The notes beneath the pieces are model-generated. The model was given only the letters and a program-made list of their open reading frames with translations. It searched no databases and was not told where the DNA came from. The position numbers and the translations under genes are program-made. Of a stretch of 64,000 nucleotides of DNA, positions 43,285-55,544 are shown one piece after another; position 1 is the stretch's first letter; each line of letters starts with the position of its first letter. Source of the DNA: Bacteroidaceae bacterium (GTDB lineage Bacteria; Bacteroidota; Bacteroidia; Bacteroidales; Bacteroidaceae); assembly GCA_017546505.1 (NCBI GenBank), contig JAFYWV010000020.1, positions 27,334 through 91,333 on the forward strand. The letters are read 5' to 3'.

Positions 43285-43812
43285 ATGAATGATGAATTGG
43301 AAATAATTGAGGAGTTCCAATCGGATAGTATAGACGAACTTGTAGATGAGAGAAAGAAGAATAAAGCTGTTCAAAGATTTATGATGCAACCTTCGACCTT
43401 TACAAAATATTATTACATAGAAAACTATCCGAATGGTGATTCTTTAAAAAGTGAAATTGCGCCAAAGGAACTTGATGAACTGGGAAAAAATAATAGAGGT
43501 TCATCGGCTAAACAAAAACATCGTAGCGATTCTTTATTTTATGCAACAATCCCTATGGTTATGCATTATGAAGGAGGCTTTGTCGATGACCCCATTGATA
43601 GAGGTGATAGAACAAATCAGGCAGTGAATGCAGTTGATGAGAAATGGTTAAAAAGAGAATTGCAAAAATCACGTGCAGAGCATTGTGATGGCATTGTGGA
43701 TAGGCGGCCTGAACAGAAGCGTTTTATAGATGGTTGGTTTTATAGGATAAATGATATTGGTAATAAATTTGGTTGTGATACAATATTTAAAAGCAGACAT
43801 TCAAAAAAATAA
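43285..43812 (+). CDS. GH108-type muramidase with internal deletion (putative effector remnant)
   Basis: 175 residues, no signal peptide. Residues 84-111 (YATIPMVMHYEGGFVDDPID, then RGDRTN) are the start of the GH108/N-acetylmuramidase domain, including the catalytic Glu of EGG (Glu96). Residues 138-158 (VDRRPEQKRFIDGWFYRIN) match the end of the same domain (PG_binding_3-like). The intervening ~80-90 residues are missing; the junction is at about residue 111 and remains in frame. An N-terminal 80-residue extension is unrecognised. It may be an inactivated lytic effector or a shortened variant; a lipoprotein of immunity type follows 6 bases later. Confidence 0.65.
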   Translation: MNDELEIIEEFQSDSIDELVDERKKNKAVQRFMMQPSTFTKYYYIENYPNGDSLKSEIAPKELDELGKNNRGSSAKQKHRSDSLFYATIPMVMHYEGGFVDDPIDRGDRTNQAVNAVDEKWLKRELQKSRAEHCDGIVDRRPEQKRFIDGWFYRINDIGNKFGCDTIFKSRHSKK

Positions 43813-43818
43813 AAGCTA

Positions 43819-44754
43819 ATGAAAAGGTTTTTGTTAATCGTTTGCACGTTGGGTGTTTTTGCTTGCAATGGCAAAAAAAATGTTGATGTCTCGGGCATTA
43901 CACCCTCACCGTTTTTGGGTTGTTGGGAGAGTGTTGTCCCAACTGATAGTATTCAAAATCTATCTGTGTGTATAGGTGAGCGAGGCGATTCGCTGCTTGT
44001 GGCATTTTTTTGGGAAAGGCTGAAACCTTTTTATATGGCGGGTAACCCGTTGAGCGATAGCAAGGGCAATACCATACCGCAGGCTTGTGTTCCTGTGCCA
44101 AAAAGTGGTAACAGTGCGATTGGCACAATTGTGAACCAATATTTTAGTGTTTTCCAAAAATATCCAAAGAATGAATATTATCCACTTGTTCTTGAACTGA
44201 AATCACTTGATACGCTTGTCTTCAAGATAAGTGGTGAGGTCAATTATTGGCCTGCCAGTGGGTTGCTTGTGCGCAAGAACAGCGAAAATTACTCTTACTC
44301 AACCGAGGTGGTAGATCTATACAAAGAAAATGCCTTTGTACCCGATGCCGATGTTTCGGTTGTAAATAAATTCGATGTCTCGGGCATTACGCCCACCCCG
44401 TTTGTAGGTGAGTGGGCGTGGGAGAAAAACGGACCTTGGCAAGATTTTAGTATGAGCATAGCAGCAAAGGGCGATTCTCTATTGCTTGTAGCCGGTGGCG
44501 TGTTTTTGGGTGGCACAAGAATGCAAATGCCTGATTGGGATAACGACGGTACCCCATTGCCACAGGCTTGCTTGCTTGCTCCCACGCTAGGTAACATAGC
44601 TGTAGGTCGCTTCTTTTTGGATGCCGATTGTACGGTAACTTTGGAGCTTTTCAGCAAAAACACCCTTTTGTTTAAAACCGGCGAACAGCTTGGCTTTTGG
44701 CCCGATAGTGCAGTGATGGTGCGAACAAGCTGTGATAACTCGATTTTCAAATAA
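43819..44754 (+). CDS. two-repeat lipoprotein, putative immunity protein
   Basis: 311 residues. The lipobox is GVFAC (Cys16). The mature protein consists of two homologous halves, residues ~22-155 and ~185-305, each opening DVSGITP(S/T)PF(L/V)G with W and carrying GDSLL, PQAC and GN(S/I)A(I/V)G marks. No known domain is recognised. Location 6 bases after a muramidase-type gene and in the periplasm-facing compartment suggests protection from peptidoglycan damage, but that is inference. Duplication could reflect binding to two targets. Confidence 0.6.
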   Translation: MKRFLLIVCTLGVFACNGKKNVDVSGITPSPFLGCWESVVPTDSIQNLSVCIGERGDSLLVAFFWERLKPFYMAGNPLSDSKGNTIPQACVPVPKSGNSAIGTIVNQYFSVFQKYPKNEYYPLVLELKSLDTLVFKISGEVNYWPASGLLVRKNSENYSYSTEVVDLYKENAFVPDADVSVVNKFDVSGITPTPFVGEWAWEKNGPWQDFSMSIAAKGDSLLLVAGGVFLGGTRMQMPDWDNDGTPLPQACLLAPTLGNIAVGRFFLDADCTVTLELFSKNTLLFKTGEQLGFWPDSAVMVRTSCDNSIFK

Positions 44755-47552: not shown

Positions 47553-48542
47553 TTATTTAAAAACTGGACGGACGCTTTGACCGTAGGCACGGTAGCCATT
47601 GTCGGAGTCGTAGAGATAGTCGCTATTGAAGCCGAGGCGGTAGGCGTAGCGTCCGATGGCGGTATCGTCGTCAGAGTTGTCGACATCGTTCGGAGTAGAA
47701 CACCAATAGAAACCTTTTTTACCGGCATCGTCAAGAAATGACTCGTAACGGTTGCCTGCTGCAGGGAGGAAGATGCTTTTGCCGCTAGGACCAGTAACAT
47801 AATAGCCGGTAACACCGTCTAGTACCGCCCAAGTCCAGTGGCAGTCATATGCCAATTCTTCCATTTCATCGAATGTTGGCATCCTCCATTCTTCTCCCCA
47901 GTTCACCGTAGCGGCATCATATGATGAGGTAAGATTTCCTTCACTGTCTATATAGCCTTTGGATTCCAATTCTGAAATACTGAGTCCGTAGGTAAGGTTG
48001 TTATTTTCTACGTATTCTGCTTTTATACTAGTCTCTCCCCAAGCATAATAGTTTCCGTATTCTTCCGGTGAACTTGCTCCTACATTACACGTTGCCCATT
48101 TTACGCTCAAGCCAAGGTCTACCCATTCGTGTTTTTGTGTTTCCGGGTCTTCCTGATTTGCTGTTTCTCCAGTTGTGAAACTCATTTCTTCTCCATAAGA
48201 CGTGCCGACTTCATTTGTAGCGTAGGCTCTTACATAATATGTGGTGTTTGCCTCCAAGTCGCTGAGCTTTGATGTGAATGTACCTAGTCCTACTTCTGCG
48301 TCTTTAACACGGTAATCCAAGATGGTAGGTGTTCCGTCAGAGTTCCAGCATACGCCACGTTCCGTAACTTCAGCGCCTCCGTCGGATGCAACCTGACCAA
48401 CAACCTCGGCTGTGCTTTCTGTAATTTCTTTTACAGATTTAGTAACTACTGTAGGTTCGACTGCTGTCGGATTTTCAATCTCCGACTCGCAAGATACCAG
48501 CGCAATTGTAAGCGCAACTAAAAATAATGATAATTTTTTCAT
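47553..48542 (-). CDS. lipoprotein with Fn3-like and Fibrobacter-paralogous (FISUMP-type) domains
   Basis: 329 residues. The lipobox is ALVSC. Residues ~30-125 form a fibronectin-like domain (TKSVKEITESTAEVVGQV, then ERGVCWN and YYVRAYATNEVGTSYG). Residues ~140-329 are the C-type FISUMP domain (HEWVDLGLSVKWATCNVGAS, EEWRMPTFDEMEELAYDCHW, SIFLPAAGNRYES, QSVRPVFK). Such proteins are numerous surface lipoproteins in Bacteroidales, of uncertain role in adhesion or glycan binding. It lies between repeat copies 1 and 2, with a truncated small-gene start upstream. Confidence 0.82.
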   Translation of the reverse strand: MKKLSLFLVALTIALVSCESEIENPTAVEPTVVTKSVKEITESTAEVVGQVASDGGAEVTERGVCWNSDGTPTILDYRVKDAEVGLGTFTSKLSDLEANTTYYVRAYATNEVGTSYGEEMSFTTGETANQEDPETQKHEWVDLGLSVKWATCNVGASSPEEYGNYYAWGETSIKAEYVENNNLTYGLSISELESKGYIDSEGNLTSSYDAATVNWGEEWRMPTFDEMEELAYDCHWTWAVLDGVTGYYVTGPSGKSIFLPAAGNRYESFLDDAGKKGFYWCSTPNDVDNSDDDTAIGRYAYRLGFNSDYLYDSDNGYRAYGQSVRPVFK

Positions 48543-48609
48543 AACTGATATTTTAGCTGTTAATGTTATATCCTTTTGTCTATTCTAGATAATAATTAAA
48601 AATCCCCCA

Positions 48610-48636
48610 TTATCCTTTAAAATACAATTGTATCAT
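48610..48636 (-). pseudogene. truncated gene start (MIQLYFKG then stop)
   Basis: The minus strand reads MIQLYFKG then TAA, identical to the first eight residues of the protein at 49378-50430. Upstream flanks are also alike. This is the leftover 5' end of a second copy of that gene, deleted after codon 8, next to repeat copy 2. Confidence 0.7.
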
Positions 48637-48662
48637 AATAGTTATAGGTTGTGTGGTTGTCT

Positions 48663-49017
48663 TGCTTACTCTTTATAGAATTTTCAGCAAACTCCTTGCT
48701 TTAACAATTGGAGTATGGACATATACAAAACAGAAAGTGTGTGGTTTGCTCACGCTTATCAACAAGATGTCGGAAAACCGAAATTCTGTCACAGCGTGTC
48801 ATAATTCAATTGTTCTAATGTATTTTATATTCTTATTTAGCTATCAAGTTTTTTCCTTTCCTTAACTTGACAATGCAAAAGTCCGGAAATAAAAAACCCT
48901 ATGCAACTTTTGTTTGCAAAGGGTTTAAAATAAATTTTAACTAATTGATATATAGCGATAAAATTTTTTATGGGGATTTATAAAGGGGAAACATTAGGGG
49001 AATGTCGGGGGAATATG
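48663..49017. repeat. 355-bp direct repeat, copy 2
   Basis: Second copy of 45435-45789. It contains the same terminator (48894-48926) and leader. To its right begins the decayed DUF2795-tail module; to its left is the truncated gene start. With copy 1 it brackets 2.87 kb that could be lost or duplicated by homologous recombination. Confidence 0.9.
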
Positions 49018-49121
49018 TCATTTCCTGATTTAGGTTGACTCCGATAGGAGACTTTCCCTGATATAAGTTGACTTTGGTTAGATTTATGACTGTTATTCGT
49101 TGACTTGTTACCTCATTCTCG

Positions 49122-49345
49122 GGCAGTCTTTGGGTAGTTTTTGACATAAAAACGACCGACTGGTTGCCCAATCGGTCGTTGCAAATCGTTGATATTTAGG
49201 TGTTAAACCTTTTTCAGCCCATCAATGCTCCTCCTCGTCAAAGACGTTTCGGGCCCTTTTTACCCCCTGATAGCAACTATATATAACGAACTATCCCGCT
49301 GGAGCAGTGCTTGGCAGTATCTGGCATATTGGGATGTGCTGAAAT
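49122..49345 (-). repeat. att-like module d: DUF2795 gene tail + hairpin + 11-bp arrays
   Basis: Left to right: GGGCAGTCTTT and GGGTAGTTTTT at 49122 and 49133; hairpin AACGACCGA/TCGGTCGTT (49151-49180); a spacer; then minus-strand codons FDEEEH-stop (49222-49242), a mutated copy of the DUF2795 C-terminus; then a degenerate GGCAGTATCT array near 49310. About 20 of 23 bases match the tail of the intact gene at 55325-55347. The rest of the 48.54-49.38 kb gap holds repeat copy 2 and no gene. Confidence 0.7.
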
Positions 49346-49377: not shown

Positions 49378-50430
49378 CTACCATTCGATAGTAATAGCAA
49401 GGATTATATTTAAGACTATTGTAGCGAGTAAGTGAGTTGGTATTTTTAGAGATTTTATTTGTATTGGATATTTTTTATCAACTTCGGCAAACTCATTTGC
49501 TAGATAACCTGTTGCGCTGATACCTAGTCCTAAAAATAAGGAGTATCCCCACCCAATTAATAGAACAGCGATAATTATAATTCCTATACCTTCTATTTTG
49601 GCTTGTTTCTTAAACTGTTCTTTCTTAATGATAGGAACAATTAAAGGGTGCTCTGGTCTAACCTCTACTATTTCTAAGAACTTTTGATATAATAGATTAC
49701 CTATTATTTTATCCTCGTTTTTCATATTATAGTTATCATCATCATCATCACTACCATTAAAAAATATATCTATTATATCAAATATACCCTTCATCTTCTT
49801 CTTAGGTTTAATTGCTCCAGATTTGACATACTTGATAAAATCTGTAAGTTCGTCGCCTTCAGTAGGTATTGGAAATTGTTTTATTGCCTGTTTGATTTCG
49901 CTTATTGTTTTTCTTTCTAAGTCGTTTTGTGCGTGATAATCCACAATAACCGAGTTCTGTGAATGATATGCCTTCACTATGCAATTCAAGGTTTCCTGTA
50001 ATCGCTCAGTAGCAGAAATTGAAGTGTCCGATTCAATCTTCTCTCTTCTTTTAGCTATTTGTGCTAATTCTTTTATCACTTCAGGTTTCTTTATCTCTAA
50101 ATATACAGCTTTAAGCGCAGTGTCATCTCCGTCTCCACTTCTATCACATTCATTCGAGGTGTTATCCGAGGATGTAGTTGTTGTCTCTTGTCCCTCAGTC
50201 TTGTCGCTTTTAGGGGCTTGGGCTGACTGCTTGGCCATTCTTTTTTCTCTTTCTTGAGCAGTTTCCCATTTTTGATTAGCAGCAAAAGAAGCCGCCCCGT
50301 GTGAACATCCCATTGATTTCAACACATTATATTTGTCCTCATATGTGTCGGATTTAACTGTAATCATTGTTCCATCGGGAACTTCGGAACAACTATTGCT
50401 CCAACTTCCTTTAAAATACAACTGTATCAT
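49378..50430 (-). CDS. island protein with small N-terminal domain and C-terminal membrane helices
   Basis: 350 residues, no recognised family. Residues 1-56 (MIQLYFKG...WSN to AANQKWE) form a small domain resembling the 61-residue protein at 45228. Residues 57-100 are a Ser/Thr/Asp-rich linker, 105-215 helical and Lys-rich, and 224-236 contain a run of Asp. Two membrane segments follow (281-304, glycine-rich GIGIIIIAVLLIGWGYSLFL; and 331-349). The plan (short N-terminal module, linker, glycine-rich hydrophobic C-terminus) fits a membrane-acting effector, but this is inference. It stands alone between two DUF2795-tail modules. Confidence 0.55.
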   Translation of the reverse strand: MIQLYFKGSWSNSCSEVPDGTMITVKSDTYEDKYNVLKSMGCSHGAASFAANQKWETAQEREKRMAKQSAQAPKSDKTEGQETTTTSSDNTSNECDRSGDGDDTALKAVYLEIKKPEVIKELAQIAKRREKIESDTSISATERLQETLNCIVKAYHSQNSVIVDYHAQNDLERKTISEIKQAIKQFPIPTEGDELTDFIKYVKSGAIKPKKKMKGIFDIIDIFFNGSDDDDDNYNMKNEDKIIGNLLYQKFLEIVEVRPEHPLIVPIIKKEQFKKQAKIEGIGIIIIAVLLIGWGYSLFLGLGISATGYLANEFAEVDKKYPIQIKSLKIPTHLLATIVLNIILAITIEW

Positions 50431-50453
50431 AATAGTTATGTGTTTGGTTATCT

Positions 50454-50590
50454 TGCCTACTCTTTACAGGATTTTCGGCAAACTCCTTCTTCGGAATTGG
50501 GGTATGGGTATATACAAAAAAAAGAAAGTGTGAGGCTTGCTCACGCTTATCAACAAGAAGGTTGTGGAAAAACCCGAACGAAAATAAACG
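50454..50590. repeat. third, diverged partial copy of the leader repeat
   Basis: About 110-135 bp resemble the left part of the 355-bp repeat (shared blocks: ACTCTTTA, AAACTCCTT, ATATACAAAA, GCTCACGCTTATCAACAAGA). It stands directly upstream of the gene at 49378-50430, just as copies 1 and 2 stand upstream of its relatives. The rest of the 50.43-51.24 kb gap holds module c and a minus-strand hydrophobic frame at 50550-50783 that I could not support as a gene. Confidence 0.65.
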
Positions 50591-50876
50591 ACGCTAATCC
50601 CCACACCTGAATGATATGGAGGTGGAATACACTGAAAACAAACAATGTATTCCCCGCCATAAACAAGCAGATAGTGAGTGTCATTCGTTCATCCTTCGTT
50701 CTTGAAAACTTCCACATTTTCTTGTAGGACAGCGAAAACACTTTCAATATTGTAAAGCCCGCACCAAGTGCAAAGCGATACAAATGTAGCGTATTATTTT
50801 AAAAAAACAAAAAACAGCAACTGAAATTTCGGTGGCAGCATATGAAGATAGTTTTATGTATTTGGTAATAGTTTCA

Positions 50877-51129
50877 GGGCTGTATTTGGGCAATCTCGCC
50901 TCATTTTCTGGCTGTTTTCGGGTAGTATTTGACACAAAAATGACCGACTGGCTGCCCAATCGGTCATTGTAAATAGTTGAAATTAAGGTGCTTGACCTTT
51001 GTGAAGTGCTTAATACTCCTCATCGTCAAAGAAGTCCTGAGCATCTTTATTCCCTGATAGACAACTGCATATAACTGACTATCCCGTTGGGTAGTATTCG
51101 GGCAGTATCTGGTATATTGGGCAGTGCCG
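50877..51129 (-). repeat. att-like module c: DUF2795 gene tail + hairpin + 11-bp arrays
   Basis: GGGCTGTATTT and related 11-mers from 50877 to 50930; hairpin AATGACCGA/TCGGTCATT (50939-50968); minus-strand tail codons DFFDDEEY-stop (51010-51036); then GGGTAGTATTC, GGGCAGTATCT and GGGCAGTGCCG at 51089, 51100 and 51119. It aligns with module d on both sides of the tail. Confidence 0.75.
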
Positions 51130-51240: not shown

Positions 51241-52238
51241 TCAGTTTCGTTTCTTCAACTCCTTCTCCAAATCCAAGAGGTCTGACATATCCTCCCTGTC
51301 TGCCTCTTCTGCTTCGAACTGTTTACGTCTTTTGTCAAACTCATCATAAACCTTGTGAACGATAGATTCCATCTGCAAGTTACTTACACTGCCAGCACCG
51401 ACAAGTAATTTTTGGTCGTTTGACAAAAGAATCTTGTCAACATTCTCTCTCCAAAAATCCATTGTCAAACCTTGACGGTTCTTTGCTCTGAACTCGGCAG
51501 TTTCAATGAAGATAACTACAAGTCTGTTCAATGAATCAAGTTCATCTTCTTTCAGGTAATTCTTGGCGATTATTATATCTTGCTTTCTGACAATATTGCC
51601 TTTCCACGATGTCAATCCCATATTTGCACTGTTTGCATCCGCTCTGCTTGTAATGATTTCAGCGGCAGTCTGTCCTGTAATGGCATACAAAGTTTGTTCT
51701 GGGTAGTAGCGTAGAACATCTGTGTTGCCTTGTCTGTCTTGTCATAATCTACGCTCAACGCAAACAAATCCCTCACCTTTTGATAGAATCGCTTTTCCGA
51801 TGCCCTAATATCACTAATACGAGCAAGCAATTCATCAAAGTAGTCAGGACGACCATCGGGGTTCTTCAAACGCTCATCATCAATAATGAATCCCTTTTGC
51901 AAGAAATCCCTCAAATGTTGGTTTGCCCATTGTCTGAACTGAACACCCCTTACTGAACGCACTCTGAAACCGAGTGCCATTATCATTTCCAAAGAGTAGA
52001 ACTTAACCTTATAACTCTTGCCATCAGAGGCAGTTGTCAAATAATCTTTGACAACTGAATTTATGTCTAATTCATTATCCTTTAATATGTTATTTATAGT
52101 ATAACTGATGCTTTGTTTAGAGGTGGCAAAAAGTTCTGCGAGTTGTGATTGGTTCAACCATACAGAACCATCACGAGCAAATAATGACACTTTTATATTG
52201 CCATCACCCGATTCGTATAGTATAATATCTTCTTTCAT
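51241..52238 (-). pseudogene. rhuM: RhuM-family protein, frameshifted
   Basis: The N-terminal ~185 residues from ATG 52238 (DIILYESGDGNIKVSLFARD, VWLNQSQLAELFATSKQSIS, MALGFRVRSVRGVQFRQWA) and the C-terminal ~148 residues (YAITGQTAAEIITSRADANS to KELKKRN) together match the full length (about 330) of the RhuM family, known from genomic islands; biochemical role unknown. They are in different frames: at about 51691 one T seems lost from a CTTTTG run. The frameshift is either a real inactivation or a sequencing error. Confidence 0.8.
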
Positions 52239-52357
52239 ATCCAATGTGTATTTAAAATTATTACCAAGCACTCATTCCGTATTTTACTACTTTTACAAAT
52301 ATAGGAACTTTGTAAGTCCTAAACAAGATTGAATTTATATAAATTATTTTAAAAGAA

Positions 52358-52432: not shown

Positions 52433-53065
52433 TTATTTGCTGTTCATTACATTTTTGAAGTCTTCCATAAAAAGCACTTTGTTATTAAAGTATTCAAATG
52501 CAATGGACATAGTTTTCATTAAACAGGGGTGTTTCTCTTTATTGATGTTGTAAAGGACCTCGAACTCTTTTTCTTGACTTTGCCCATCTACGATATTCGA
52601 CCAATAGAATTGCCAAAATTGCATCTGATGTCCTTTTTCTATTTTTGACAGACAGTATAAGAATACATCATTTCTTTGTTGCATTGTGTAATGTAGCAAT
52701 CCTTGCAGATGGTTTGGTGCATCGACGTCAAGCGAGGCTCCAACCGATAATGCTATTAACTTATTACAGTATAGAGTGTCGTTTATTGCATAACATTCCG
52801 CGAGAGTCTTTATGTGTTCGTATGCTTGGCTGTACATTGACAAGTCATACCCATCTTTGTCGCTGTATTTATATGTAGAGTTAAAATCGTCCCAATTATC
52901 AGGAAAAGCCTTGAAAAAATCCAGTTGCAACTCCCTTGATTGTGGATTTTTCAATAATTTTCTGTATGTTCTATTCAGCAGTGCAGTGTCAACAGGGAAA
53001 TATTGTGCTGTGGCTGTTGAAAGTAGCGTCGCAAATAGCAATAGCGTAAGAAAAATCTGTTTCAT
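52433..53065 (-). CDS. secreted protein, putative immunity partner of the DUF5675 effector
   Basis: 210 residues with a signal peptide (MKQIFLTLLLFATLLSTATA). The mature part is helical and rich in Tyr, Asn and Lys; it has no lipobox and no recognised family. It follows the DUF5675-like gene by 25 bases on the same strand and is followed by a terminator, so they make a two-gene unit. Periplasmic location and pairing with an envelope-directed protein are the reasons for the immunity proposal; no direct proof is visible. Confidence 0.55.
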   Translation of the reverse strand: MKQIFLTLLLFATLLSTATAQYFPVDTALLNRTYRKLLKNPQSRELQLDFFKAFPDNWDDFNSTYKYSDKDGYDLSMYSQAYEHIKTLAECYAINDTLYCNKLIALSVGASLDVDAPNHLQGLLHYTMQQRNDVFLYCLSKIEKGHQMQFWQFYWSNIVDGQSQEKEFEVLYNINKEKHPCLMKTMSIAFEYFNNKVLFMEDFKNVMNSK

Positions 53066-53090: not shown

Positions 53091-53681
53091 TTATTCGGAA
53101 TCTACATTTATTTTTATTCCATTATGTCCGTAATTGTCAAAAAAATCAAAAAGTTCTTTTGCTTTTTTCTTGGATTCCCAAACATTGTAAGTTTCTGTCT
53201 CTTTATCATATGAATAATTTTCGCCAGGCAAGAAACAGCCTTCCGTATCCTTCCCATAATTACCAGTATGTATGGCAATGCCACTACGACCAGGCACACT
53301 ATCTACATACCATTGATAAGTTAATTGAATATCTGTTTCCCCTCTTTTTCTTCTTTCTGTGTTTATCCTTTCTTCTAATATTTTCTTAGGAATGACTTTG
53401 TAGTTTCCTTGTGCAATTGATGTATCACTATTTTTTATTTTTGCTCTATTATAGTCTGTTTCTGGTTCAAGAAAATAACCTTTTATTGAGTCCACTTTAT
53501 TGCCTGTTTCATCGTATGCCATTGCAATAAATTTGCTTACAGTGCTCTTCTTACCATACCCGATTCTAGTTGTATTTACAACAACATTTGTTTTTGTCTT
53601 TTGCTTTATTTCCCCATTCTTGCCATCCTCAAATGCTGTTGCAATTTCAAAAATGCTTGGTCTGTTTAAGTAATTTGCCAT
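53091..53681 (-). CDS. DUF5675-domain protein, putative envelope-targeting effector
   Basis: 196 residues, no signal peptide. Residues 1-22 (MANYLNRPSIFEIATAFEDG) are an N-terminal motif shared with the effector at 54592. The C-terminal domain has the DUF5675 core: YFLEPETDYNR, GNYKVIP, and SGIAIHTGNYGKDTEGCFLP, in which His138 and Cys149 resemble the His/Cys pair of L,D-transpeptidase-like folds. DUF5675 occurs in phage and secretion-associated contexts; acting on peptidoglycan is inference. It is driven by a promoter block shared with the other effector and followed by a secreted partner. Confidence 0.68.
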   Translation of the reverse strand: MANYLNRPSIFEIATAFEDGKNGEIKQKTKTNVVVNTTRIGYGKKSTVSKFIAMAYDETGNKVDSIKGYFLEPETDYNRAKIKNSDTSIAQGNYKVIPKKILEERINTERRKRGETDIQLTYQWYVDSVPGRSGIAIHTGNYGKDTEGCFLPGENYSYDKETETYNVWESKKKAKELFDFFDNYGHNGIKINVDSE

Positions 53682-53772
53682 ATTAAAAAAGTTTTACCAT
53701 TAATAATACCGCAAAATTATTGTATGGTTCCCGTGACAAGGTTGCTGATTTGTCACTTTCTTATTATTATCC

Positions 53773-53803
53773 CAAATATACAACCTCAACCATCGGTTGT
53801 CAA
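53773..53803 (-). promoter_or_regulatory. promoter of effector B, shared leader block
   Basis: On the minus strand TTG (53803-53801), 20 bp, TATATTTG (53780-53773). A second -7-like TAATTTTG lies nearer the gene. The block 53733-53850 aligns with 55137-55255 upstream of the other effector, including GACAAGGTATTGACAACCGA. Confidence 0.78.
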
Positions 53804-53944
53804 TACCTTGTCGGGAAAAGATTTACTATTTTGTTTATTTTAACAAATAGGTGTTTTTGCAAAAAGTGCCTTGTAGAGCGTCAGGGTAGTCTCTCGCCTC
53901 TCACTTACTATTCTTATTTTCAGGAGGATTTGGTAATGGTTTCA

Positions 53945-54093
53945 GGGCAGTATTTGGGCAGTATTTGGGCAGTTTTCGGGTAGTTTTTGACATAAAAATG
54001 ACCGACTGGACTGCCCAATCGGTCATTGTAAATCGTTGATATTTAGGTGTTAAACCTTTTTCAACCCATTAATACTCTTCTTCGTCAAAGAAG
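53945..54093 (-). repeat. att-like module b: DUF2795 gene tail + hairpin + 11-bp array
   Basis: Four consecutive 11-mers start at 53945, 53956, 53967 and 53978 (GGGCAGTATTT twice, GGGCAGTTTTC, GGGTAGTTTTT). Then hairpin AATGACCGA/TCGGTCATT (53997-54027), a spacer nearly identical to module d, and minus-strand tail codons FFDEEEY-stop (54069-54092) identical at 22 of 23 bases to the end of the intact DUF2795 gene. Here the homology stops at the tail; no array lies on its right. Confidence 0.8.
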
Positions 54094-54176
54094 TGAATGA
54101 TATTTGAATGTCAATGATTTATTATAAATGCCTTTTGATTAAACAAGTTTATTTTGTGTCAAAATACGGCAAAATA

Positions 54177-54617
54177 CTATTCCTCATATATATGAACATA
54201 TCTGTCTTTATCTAAGATTAAATCTTGTTTGAAATATAATATTGGTTTATTATTCGGAAACTTGATAAAGGAAAAAGATGCATACTTGGCTTCTATTTCA
54301 CTATATGCTTTTACAGTACCGTTATCTATAAAGAGGATTCTTGCATATGTGTCGTCTAGTGTATAACTGCATTTTTCTCTTAGTCTTTTTGACATTTTAT
54401 AAGGCAATGACCAGATAACCTTTTCATCATCATAAGGGTGTATGATATATATGCTGTCAAAATGACCTTCGCAATAATTTGCAAAAGAAAAAACTTGTTC
54501 TGTCGGTTGTGTTTTAAGTTGTAAGTCAAGTTTAGGCTCTCTTGGTGTACAACCAGTGAGTAACAGTGTTGTCAATATTGTGATTATGGCGTTATTTAAG
54601 CATATAAAGTTTCCCAT
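54177..54617 (-). CDS. lipoprotein, putative immunity partner of the DUF6973-like effector
   Basis: 146 residues from ATG 54617 (another ATG at 54629 adds four codons). The lipobox is LLLTGC. The mature protein is small with mixed beta/alpha content and no recognised family. The start lies inside the 3' end of the effector gene (overlap 26 bases), so the two are translationally coupled, the usual layout for effector-immunity pairs. It would face the periplasm, consistent with an envelope-acting effector. Confidence 0.6.
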   Translation of the reverse strand: MGNFICLNNAIITILTTLLLTGCTPREPKLDLQLKTQPTEQVFSFANYCEGHFDSIYIIHPYDDEKVIWSLPYKMSKRLREKCSYTLDDTYARILFIDNGTVKAYSEIEAKYASFSFIKFPNNKPILYFKQDLILDKDRYVHIYEE

Positions 54618-55098
54618 TGTTTGCTGCATTTATTACGTTGTTTAATAATTCTTCCTCATTCCAATTGTTTTTTATAGCTTCGTTCCCTAGTGAATAACCG
54701 ATAGAGTTGTTATGTAAGTCCATCTTTTTTGCATTTGGTTTGTTTGTAGGTTTGTTTTCGTGTGCATCTCCAAATTCTTTCGCAAGAGTAGATTTGTAAC
54801 CTGCAGAAACTTGGTTTAAAGCACACCAATAACAATGTCTGACAGCATCACCGTAACCATCTTCTTTGTTTGGAAAATGCTCTACAGCTTTTTTTGCTTT
54901 ATTTGCATTGTTGTTGAACTTATATGCAAGAGTTGGGTGTTTGAATACAAAACTCTTTTCATCATTGGAGAGGGTGTTGTATGTGTTTTCATAGCCATCT
55001 TCTTGCGGTTGAAAGTTTCCTTCATTCCAATTATCATACGCTCTTGCTCTCTCAAAAATGTTTGGTATTCTCTGGCCGTTGTTAAAAAAGTTACTCAT
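54592..55098 (-). CDS. DUF6973-like protein, putative effector
   Basis: 168 residues, no signal peptide. The N-terminus (MSNFFNNGQRIPNIFERARA) shares the motif N-F/Y-x-N ... IFExAxAF/Y with the effector at 53091. The rest has GDAVRHCYWCALN (Asp84, Arg87, His88), FGDAHE (Asp111, His113, Glu114) and KMDLHNN (Asp127, His129, Asn130-131), the conserved pattern of the DUF6973 family, which looks like a metal- or His/Asp-dependent hydrolase. Target unknown; phospholipid or peptidoglycan are guesses from the lipoprotein partner. It lies in its own module between tail copy b and the intact DUF2795 gene. Confidence 0.68.
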   Translation of the reverse strand: MSNFFNNGQRIPNIFERARAYDNWNEGNFQPQEDGYENTYNTLSNDEKSFVFKHPTLAYKFNNNANKAKKAVEHFPNKEDGYGDAVRHCYWCALNQVSAGYKSTLAKEFGDAHENKPTNKPNAKKMDLHNNSIGYSLGNEAIKNNWNEEELLNNVINAANNGKLYMLK

Positions 55099-55176
55099 AA
55101 TTATTGCACTTTAAAATTACAATGCAAAATTACCGTATGACCTTTTCTGCAAGGTTGCTGAATTGCCACTTTTAAG

Positions 55177-55207
55177 CAAATATACAAAACGAAGAATCGG
55201 TTGTCAA
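55177..55207 (-). promoter_or_regulatory. promoter of effector C, shared leader block
   Basis: On the minus strand TTG (55207-55205), 20 bp, TATATTTG (55184-55177), about 79 bases before the ATG. The surrounding block matches 53733-53850, and a second TAATTTTG box is also shared. Confidence 0.8.
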
Positions 55208-55257
55208 TACCTTGTCGTGAAAAGATGTTCTATTTTGTCTACTTTAACAAATAAAAT

Positions 55258-55322: not shown

Positions 55323-55544
55323 TCAATACTCCTCTTCGTCAAAGAAGAAATCCTCCTTGCTCGGGTAGTCGGGCCAGATGTCCTCGATGCTTTCGTAAAC
55401 ATCACCTTCGTCCTCAATCTCCTGCAAGTTCTCTATAACCTCCAATGGCGCACCTGAACGCACTGCGTAGTCAATGAGCTCGTCCTTTGTTGCGGGCCAG
55501 GGTGCATCCTCCAATTTCGATGCTAATTCCAGTGTCCAATACAT
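55323..55544 (-). CDS. DUF2795-domain protein
   Basis: 73 residues: a compact helical domain (LASKLEDAPWPATKDELIDY, then AVRSGAPLEVIENLQEI) and a very acidic C-terminus ending FFFDEEEY. DUF2795 is widespread in Bacteroidetes with no known function. It stands alone, 60 bases downstream of the cobalamin adenosyltransferase gene. Its last 23 bases recur three times in the island to the left, so its 3' end looks like an integration site whose coding sense is restored by each incoming element. Confidence 0.88.
   Translation of the reverse strand: MYWTLELASKLEDAPWPATKDELIDYAVRSGAPLEVIENLQEIEDEGDVYESIEDIWPDYPSKEDFFFDEEEY

What the first reader, a model, noticed from the sequence alone, without database searches (positions are those of the whole stretch)
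53091..55255. Two neighbouring effector genes share promoter, leader and N-terminus but have different toxin domains
Blocks 53733-53850 and 55137-55255 align, including GACAAGGTATTGACAACCGA, a TTG-20bp-TATATTTG promoter and a second TAATTTTG box. The two proteins that follow (DUF5675-like and DUF6973-like) share only their first ~20 residues. Each is followed by an exported partner: a signal-peptide protein in one case, a lipoprotein that overlaps the effector gene in the other. This looks like a fixed 5' module joined to exchangeable effector-immunity 3' modules, so one regulation and recognition signal serves many toxins. What delivers them is not in the window.
Basis: partly seen in the sequence, partly recalled or inferred. 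Interest (0 to 1): 0.85.

Follow-up and report, generated by a model that had tools for sequence, protein, structure and literature searches.

The report
Swappable bacterial toxin-immunity cassettes, shared start
In uncultured gut bacteria of the Bacteroidaceae, two different predicted antibacterial toxins share one promoter and one short protein start, sit with exported partner genes at a recombination hotspot, and occur in a genus where two markers of known injection machines were not found, so how they would leave the cell is open.

Summary
In detail: the two blocks align, and a third copy lies elsewhere in the genome. Across the genus the leader plus first ~22-25 codons is a real exchangeable 5' module: 24 of 24 N-term profile matches in 16 genomes lead into DUF5675 (12) or DUF6973 (12); its tree is no better sorted by toxin than shuffled labels (9 changes, shuffled mean 8.2); homology ends around nt 60-90; the peptide core is under purifying selection (pN/pS 0.12). 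So two toxins, not "many". Toxin copies are often broken (16 of 45), partner genes rarely (3 of 52; p=0.0003). New: cassettes are bordered by direct repeats of a 24-bp core that is the 3' end of the DUF2795 gene, a hotspot with a tyrosine recombinase beside it in 3 of 29 loci. DUF6973 is also the domain of a solved B. fragilis T6SS effector, yet TssD is missing in 44 of 44 genus genomes though found in 33 of 399 of the family. Most likely: a polymorphic-toxin/immunity hotspot with an unidentified export route. Function untested.

The parts
55323..55544 (-). DUF2795 host gene; its 3' end is the presumed attachment site
   Evidence: PF11387 E 6e-18; found in 37 of 44 genus genomes with a variable 3' flank
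55323..55346 (-). core repeat R4 (FFDEEEY*), in the gene end
55137..55255 (-). leader/promoter copy 2
54592..55098 (-). toxin candidate with DUF6973 domain and N-terminal module MSNFFNNGQRIPNIFERARAYDNWNEG
   Evidence: PF22322 E 1e-22
54177..54629 (-). lipoprotein-like partner (predicted immunity), overlaps the DUF6973 gene by 38 nt
   Evidence: a homologue follows intact DUF6973 in 13 of 13 cases
54069..54093 (-). core repeat R3, no gene in frame, followed by hairpin and GGGCAG repeats
53733..53850 (-). leader/promoter copy 1
53091..53681 (-). toxin candidate with DUF5675 domain and N-terminal module MANYLNRPSIFEIATAFEDGKNG
   Evidence: PF18925 E 1e-18
52433..53065 (-). signal-peptide-like partner (predicted immunity)
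   Evidence: no Pfam hit; homologues recur beside DUF5675 genes
51241..52271 (-). RhuM-family gene in two frames, passenger
   Evidence: PF13310 in both halves; one 332-aa frame in L148
51010..51034 (-). core repeat R2
49378..50430 (-). 350-aa gene of unknown function in the next core-delimited segment
   Evidence: no family over a curated cut-off, none in PADLOC
49222..49244 (-). degenerate core repeat R1 with the same downstream sequence
   Evidence: longer repeat 49121-49247 (G000:C3:76454-76580), 90%; core read from sequence
43285..43812 (+). GH108/PG_binding_3 toxin candidate, lacking the middle of its relatives
   Evidence: PF09374 E 1e-5, PF05838 E 5e-4, the latter just under its cut-off; 269 aa in L163 against 175
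43819..44754 (+). lipoprotein-like partner of the GH108 gene
   Evidence: 9 copies, all intact, in the 34 places

Best explanation
This is a polymorphic toxin-immunity hotspot. Each cassette reads: core repeat, terminator-like hairpin, promoter leader, a ~22-25-residue N-terminal peptide joined to one of two toxin domains (DUF6973 or DUF5675), then one or more exported partner proteins, and often a further core. Shown by sequence: the leader and peptide are swapped between the two toxin types; cassettes sit behind the 3' end of the DUF2795 gene (or of a second gene with a similar end), with direct core repeats between them; toxin genes decay while partner genes stay. Inferred: a tyrosine recombinase uses the core as attachment site and cassettes are added in tandem; recombination in the shared leader and N-terminus swaps toxins; the toxins act in the periplasm or cell wall of neighbours and the partners neutralise them; the constrained peptide is a common export or loading signal for a machine not yet identified. 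Decayed cassettes survive as orphan immunity.
For: Leader DNA in 16 of 44 genomes, 25 places (one, L068 in G014, is an unrelated promoter by eye). 24 of 24 N-term profile matches lead into DUF5675 (12) or DUF6973 (12). Leader tree of 24 rows: 9 label changes, shuffled mean 8.2, 428 of 500 shuffles as low; a starred clade of 6 holds 4+2 of the two toxins, another pairs both toxins of L077; starred branches alone force 3 changes. Similar junction in the six cross-toxin pairs that I chose. pN/pS 0.12 in the peptide core (13 of 24 rows). Promoter form in 19 of 24 leaders against 64 of 2000 random window pieces. Intact DUF6973 followed by the lipoprotein in 13 of 13; toxin copies broken 16 of 45, partners 3 of 52, p 0.0003. 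Core: 53 places in 35 of 44 genomes, reversed control pattern 0; of 20 copies not at a DUF2795 end, 13 are on the same contig and strand 1.2-8.2 kb downstream of it, 7 on other contigs (listing, counted by hand). Recombinase about 345 bp behind the core in 3 of 29 loci (Pfam for one). GC 35.6% against 46.9 and 48.5% in the flanks. DUF6973 is in solved B. fragilis T6SS effector 9uu0 and, by eye, fused to an Rhs core in another genus.
Against: No toxicity, immunity or secretion is shown. TssD 0 of 44 and gp25-type baseplate 0 of 44 in the genus, so no delivery route is known. No recombinase was found in window 36-60 kb, no element with both ends was resolved, and no recombinase was seen on one contig with a toxin. 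The core is also a coding end, so part of its conservation is protein constraint; some of the 7 unlinked copies may be unrelated gene ends. The DUF6973 profile's best PDB score was a nitrile hydratase (E 4e-4, weak repeated stretches), above 9uu0 (E 0.006). Genomes are incomplete assemblies, many contigs end near these repeats. DUF5675 also occurs in phages.
Confidence: 0.65

Rival explanations
1. The genes are effectors of an ordinary T6SS that came by transfer; the genus lost or never had the machine, and the locus now works only as acquired immunity, with toxins on their way out.
For: DUF6973 is a domain of a solved B. fragilis T6SS effector; TssD and gp25 found in 0 of 44 genomes; 16 of 45 toxin copies broken, partners kept; partner genes behind a bare leader in L062 and behind toxin stubs in L085 and L069.
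Against: 29 toxin copies are intact and the N-terminal peptide is under purifying selection; no match to the peptide better than E 0.01 was found outside the genus in the family sample, which holds 33 T6SS-bearing genomes (one of them, G076, has a borderline match at E 0.035).
Confidence: 0.3
2. The shared 5' parts are only recent gene conversion or duplication between neighbours, with no functional module.
For: The two toxin genes of L077 have near-identical leaders (starred sisters), as conversion predicts.
Against: The same exchange is seen between genomes, homology ends at similar codons in six pairs, and per site synonymous change exceeds amino-acid change eightfold.
Confidence: 0.15
3. 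They are phage-type lysins or cell-wall enzymes in a mobile island, not toxins aimed at neighbours.
For: DUF5675 occurs in 16 phage records (phrog_1501); GIAIH...GC resembles an L,D-transpeptidase motif (recalled).
Against: Pairing with exported-looking partners, excess of partners over toxins, and Rhs-like fusions of DUF6973. The loci were not scanned systematically for phage genes.
Confidence: 0.12
4. The core repeats arose by homologous or replicative duplication of the DUF2795 gene end, not by site-specific recombination.
For: No element with both ends and a recombinase was resolved; in G024 a second copy matches 25 codons of the gene.
Against: Copies read in other loci share only ~24 nt on the left and then one of a few head sequences, with unrelated cargo between; a recombinase sits at the site in 3 genomes.
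Confidence: 0.25

Closest known systems
[quoted passage not shown]
   Same: AT-rich short co-oriented genes, orphan immunity, repeated intergenic motif, tyrosine recombinase linked to the site
   Different: intact toxins sit with their partners; border is a coding gene end; where a recombinase is at the site it reads against the array; none found near the window's array; not compared with the rAID recombinase by sequence
Bacteroides fragilis T6SS effector, PDB 9uu0 (DUF6973)
   Same: same domain
   Different: no T6SS marker found in this genus; short own N-terminal peptide
TANFOR polymorphic toxins of Bacteroidetes (PMC7073777, abstract and passages seen)
   Same: fixed N-terminus, exchangeable toxin, downstream immunity
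   Different: TANFOR is ~147 residues on large proteins hypothesised to use T9SS; here 22-25 residues, and no NCBIfam match
MIX/FIX T6SS delivery domains (named in PMC7073777 passages) and eCIS N-terminal packaging signals (recalled)
   Same: one N-terminal region serves several toxins
   Different: sequence not compared here; two contractile-system markers not found
Tlde1, an L,D-transpeptidase-fold T6SS effector with exported immunity (recalled)
   Same: similar motif type, periplasmic target and exported partner (recalled)
   Different: family membership not tested; no fold could be predicted

Membership tests
polymorphic toxin systems | conserved N-terminal part joined to variable C-terminal toxin domain | tested here: met
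   two domains behind one module
polymorphic toxin systems | adjacent immunity-like gene | tested here: met
   13 of 13 intact DUF6973 followed by the lipoprotein; function not tested
polymorphic toxin systems | toxic activity neutralised by partner | not testable with these tools
   needs experiment
rAID | two or more co-directional genes under 41% GC | tested here: met
   window array 49.2-55.3 kb, main genes on the minus strand, 35.6% GC
rAID | tyrosine recombinase homologue upstream of the array | tested here: not met
   none found in window 36-60 kb (the rest of the window was not searched with it); in 3 other genomes it lies at the site on the opposite strand, with no toxin or immunity hit in the 2.4-9.5 kb read there; one of these, G037, has cassettes on other contigs
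rAID | conserved intergenic motif | tested here: inconclusive
   core and leader repeat, but rAID motifs were not available for comparison
T6SS effector | encoded in a genome with a T6SS | tested here: not met
   TssD 0 of 44 genus genomes (where its 14 control genomes were silent too), 33 of 399 in the family with the same model; gp25 0 of 44, controls ring
TANFOR toxins | N-terminal TANFOR domain | tested here: not met
   no NCBIfam match for either effector; that the library holds the TANFOR model was not checked, but 22-25 residues are far short of ~147
integrase-served cassettes | integrase-dependent insertion at a specific site | tested here: inconclusive
   core repeats and adjacent recombinase; reaction not shown

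The most novel reading that the evidence does not exclude
The ~22-residue N-terminal peptide is the loading or export signal of an undescribed, non-contractile toxin export route in this T6SS-less genus, and one promoter plus signal unit is traded between toxins at a recombinase-served cassette hotspot whose attachment site is the stop-codon end of a host gene; toxins erode in place and leave orphan immunity.
Probability: 0.3. Interest if true: 0.85.

Novelty: new variant of a known kind. Interest (0 to 1): 0.62.

Why it matters
It gives a clear natural case of a short 5' module, promoter plus N-terminal peptide, being swapped between toxins, shows toxin cassettes turning into orphan immunity in place, and points to a genus with constrained toxin N-termini but no T6SS marker, which makes the search for its export route testable. 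It also bears on how orphan-immunity arrays such as rAID arise, which PMC12247911 (passage seen) calls an area of active research.

Tried and rejected
Chance similarity of the leaders: rejected. Broad toxin variety behind the leader: rejected, two domains only. A module spread over the family or order: not found at this sensitivity in samples of 399 and 393 genomes. An exact scan for IFEIATA[FY]E in 84,980 species gave 12 contigs: 11 of Bacteroidaceae MAGs titled with ruminant gut samples and one Bacteroidales MAG of unstated source. Anti-phage (PADLOC) families: no hits for seven proteins. The DUF5675 profile gave no credible match to a solved structure (best E 0.05). Literature searches: DUF6973 in 0 papers; DUF5675 in 2 phage papers, listing only; DUF2795 in 2 unrelated papers, listing only; orphan-immunity/cassette terms in 1 paper. 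A search of phage and plasmid records with the DUF5675 protein found only distant domains, 16 and 2 records; DUF6973 was not searched there. Structure prediction never started: the machine was busy at each of 14 attempts.

Full report
What is there. On the minus strand, two neighbouring genes, 53091-53681 (DUF5675) and 54592-55098 (DUF6973), have aligned leaders and N-termini. The leader holds TTG-20-TATATTTG, a second TAATTTTG box and the shared 20-mer GACAAGGTATTGACAACCGA. A third copy lies on another contig of the same genome, before a DUF5675 paralogue (61%) and a lipoprotein-like gene.

Is it a module? The leader plus N-term DNA matches in 16 of 44 same-genus genomes at E<=0.001, 25 places. 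One of these (L068, the only match in G014) is by eye an unrelated sugar-kinase promoter, and L060 is a bare leader. The best non-self match of the window's DUF5675 leader (89%, G026) fronts a DUF6973 gene. An N-terminal profile finds 24 matches at E<=7e-4 in 16 genomes of the genus: 12 DUF5675 and 12 DUF6973, including three broken genes. In a tree of 24 leaders plus N-termini, toxin type changes 9 times, no fewer than for shuffled labels (mean 8.2; 428 of 500 as low). In six close cross-toxin pairs, picked by me, identity is 83-100% over nt 0-59, 40-73% over nt 60-89 and at background beyond. Within the peptide core pS is 0.46 and pN 0.057 (13 of 24 rows, IFEIATA-like rows only), so the peptide itself is constrained. 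The promoter form is in 19 of 24 leaders, against 64 of 2000 random window pieces.

How widely. The exact peptide motif occurs in 12 contigs of the 84,980-species collection: 11 of Bacteroidaceae MAGs titled with ruminant gut samples and one Bacteroidales MAG. Outside the genus the profile gives only borderline matches (4 of 399 family genomes at E 0.01-0.05; 5 of 393 order genomes at E 0.005-0.04). DUF6973 also occurs with other short N-termini in the genus, on 320-437-residue proteins (two of them with lipoprotein-like partners, by eye), behind an Rhs-like core in another genus (L187, by eye), and beside a lipoprotein that looks similar in a third (L174, by eye). A GH108 gene with its own lipoprotein-like partner recurs in the same arrays; I noticed no such leader before it.

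The site. The 3' end of the DUF2795 gene, TTCTTTGACGAAGAGGAGTATTGA (FFDEEEY*), recurs without the gene at 54069-54093, 51010-51034 and, degenerate, at 49222-49244. In the genus the core pattern has 53 places in 35 of 44 genomes and 0 for the reversed control. By my count from the listing, 33 are DUF2795 gene ends; of the 20 others, 13 lie on the same contig and strand 1.2-8.2 kb downstream and 7 on other contigs, where some may be unrelated gene ends. The DUF2795 gene is found in 37 of 44 genomes. In the 29 loci read, what follows it varies: toxin or partner homologues (the GH108 pair included) in 12, a tyrosine recombinase in 3, RhuM in 2, by eye a DNA methylase in 1, and in G017 directly a porP-like gene, an apparently empty site; four had under 300 bp of flank. 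In the window the porP homologue lies 18 kb away. The sequence right of the core falls into a few head types found both at gene ends and at extra cores. A second site is the end of a 172-aa gene without a Pfam match (HD-like by eye) ending FFDKEEY*. I read this as site-specific accretion, but no complete element was resolved.

Decay. Over 34 places, DUF5675 and DUF6973 copies were 29 intact and 16 broken; the three partner families 49 intact and 3 broken, 5 contig-edge cases set aside (Fisher p 0.0003). Examples: leader fused to a toxin stub before partner genes (L085), a stop codon in the peptide (G018), leader directly before partner genes with no toxin (L062). In the window the GH108 gene lacks the middle of the protein while its partner is intact.

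Function. A DUF6973 profile matches PDB 9uu0, named a B. fragilis T6SS effector (E 0.006; a nitrile hydratase scored higher through weak repeated stretches), and the printed fragment of that chain matches the DUF6973 model at E 5e-14, over its cut-off. In PMC12718326 (passages seen) B. fragilis effectors Bte1 and Bte2 act in or from the periplasm; which effector 9uu0 is I could not tell. Exported partners fit periplasmic targets. DUF5675 carries a conserved GIAIH.G..G...GC stretch, like L,D-transpeptidases (recalled); one phage homologue is annotated as a transpeptidase.

Delivery. TssD is found in 0 of 44 genomes; the model works in this family, with 33 of 399 genomes positive. A gp25-type baseplate protein is found in 0 of 44, with E. 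coli and Synechococcus ringing as controls. These are incomplete assemblies and only two markers. Genes that look like T9SS gldK-N and porP are in the window (named by eye), but the toxins have no visible signal peptide. The export route is open.

Verdict. Real module exchange and a real hotspot; a variant of known polymorphic-toxin and orphan-immunity systems. One defining feature each of rAID and of T6SS effectors was tested and not met, so I file it under neither.

Noticed in passing
window 48540-48900 and 50400-50700 (- strand): A second duplicated leader with the first codons MIQLYFKG, 82% over 173 nt, before two different genes; the second copy soon meets a stop.
   Followed up: partly
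window 43285-44754: GH108 toxin-like gene lacking the middle of its relatives, beside an intact lipoprotein-like partner; the pair recurs in relatives' arrays.
   Followed up: partly
window 51241-52271: RhuM-family gene in two frames; one 332-aa frame in L148 between two cores.
   Followed up: partly
L148 3667-10421: A core-bordered segment in G001 carries large proteins that look DUF262-like (by eye, not scanned), suggesting a mixed defence cargo.
   Followed up: no
L187, L174: By eye, DUF6973 fused to an Rhs core, and a 255-aa form with another N-terminus plus a similar lipoprotein, in other genera.
   Followed up: partly
window 53700-53820 and 55140-55220: The leader has GACAAGGT upstream and ACCTTGTC/ACCTTG downstream of the promoter, a possible operator dyad (read).
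   Followed up: no
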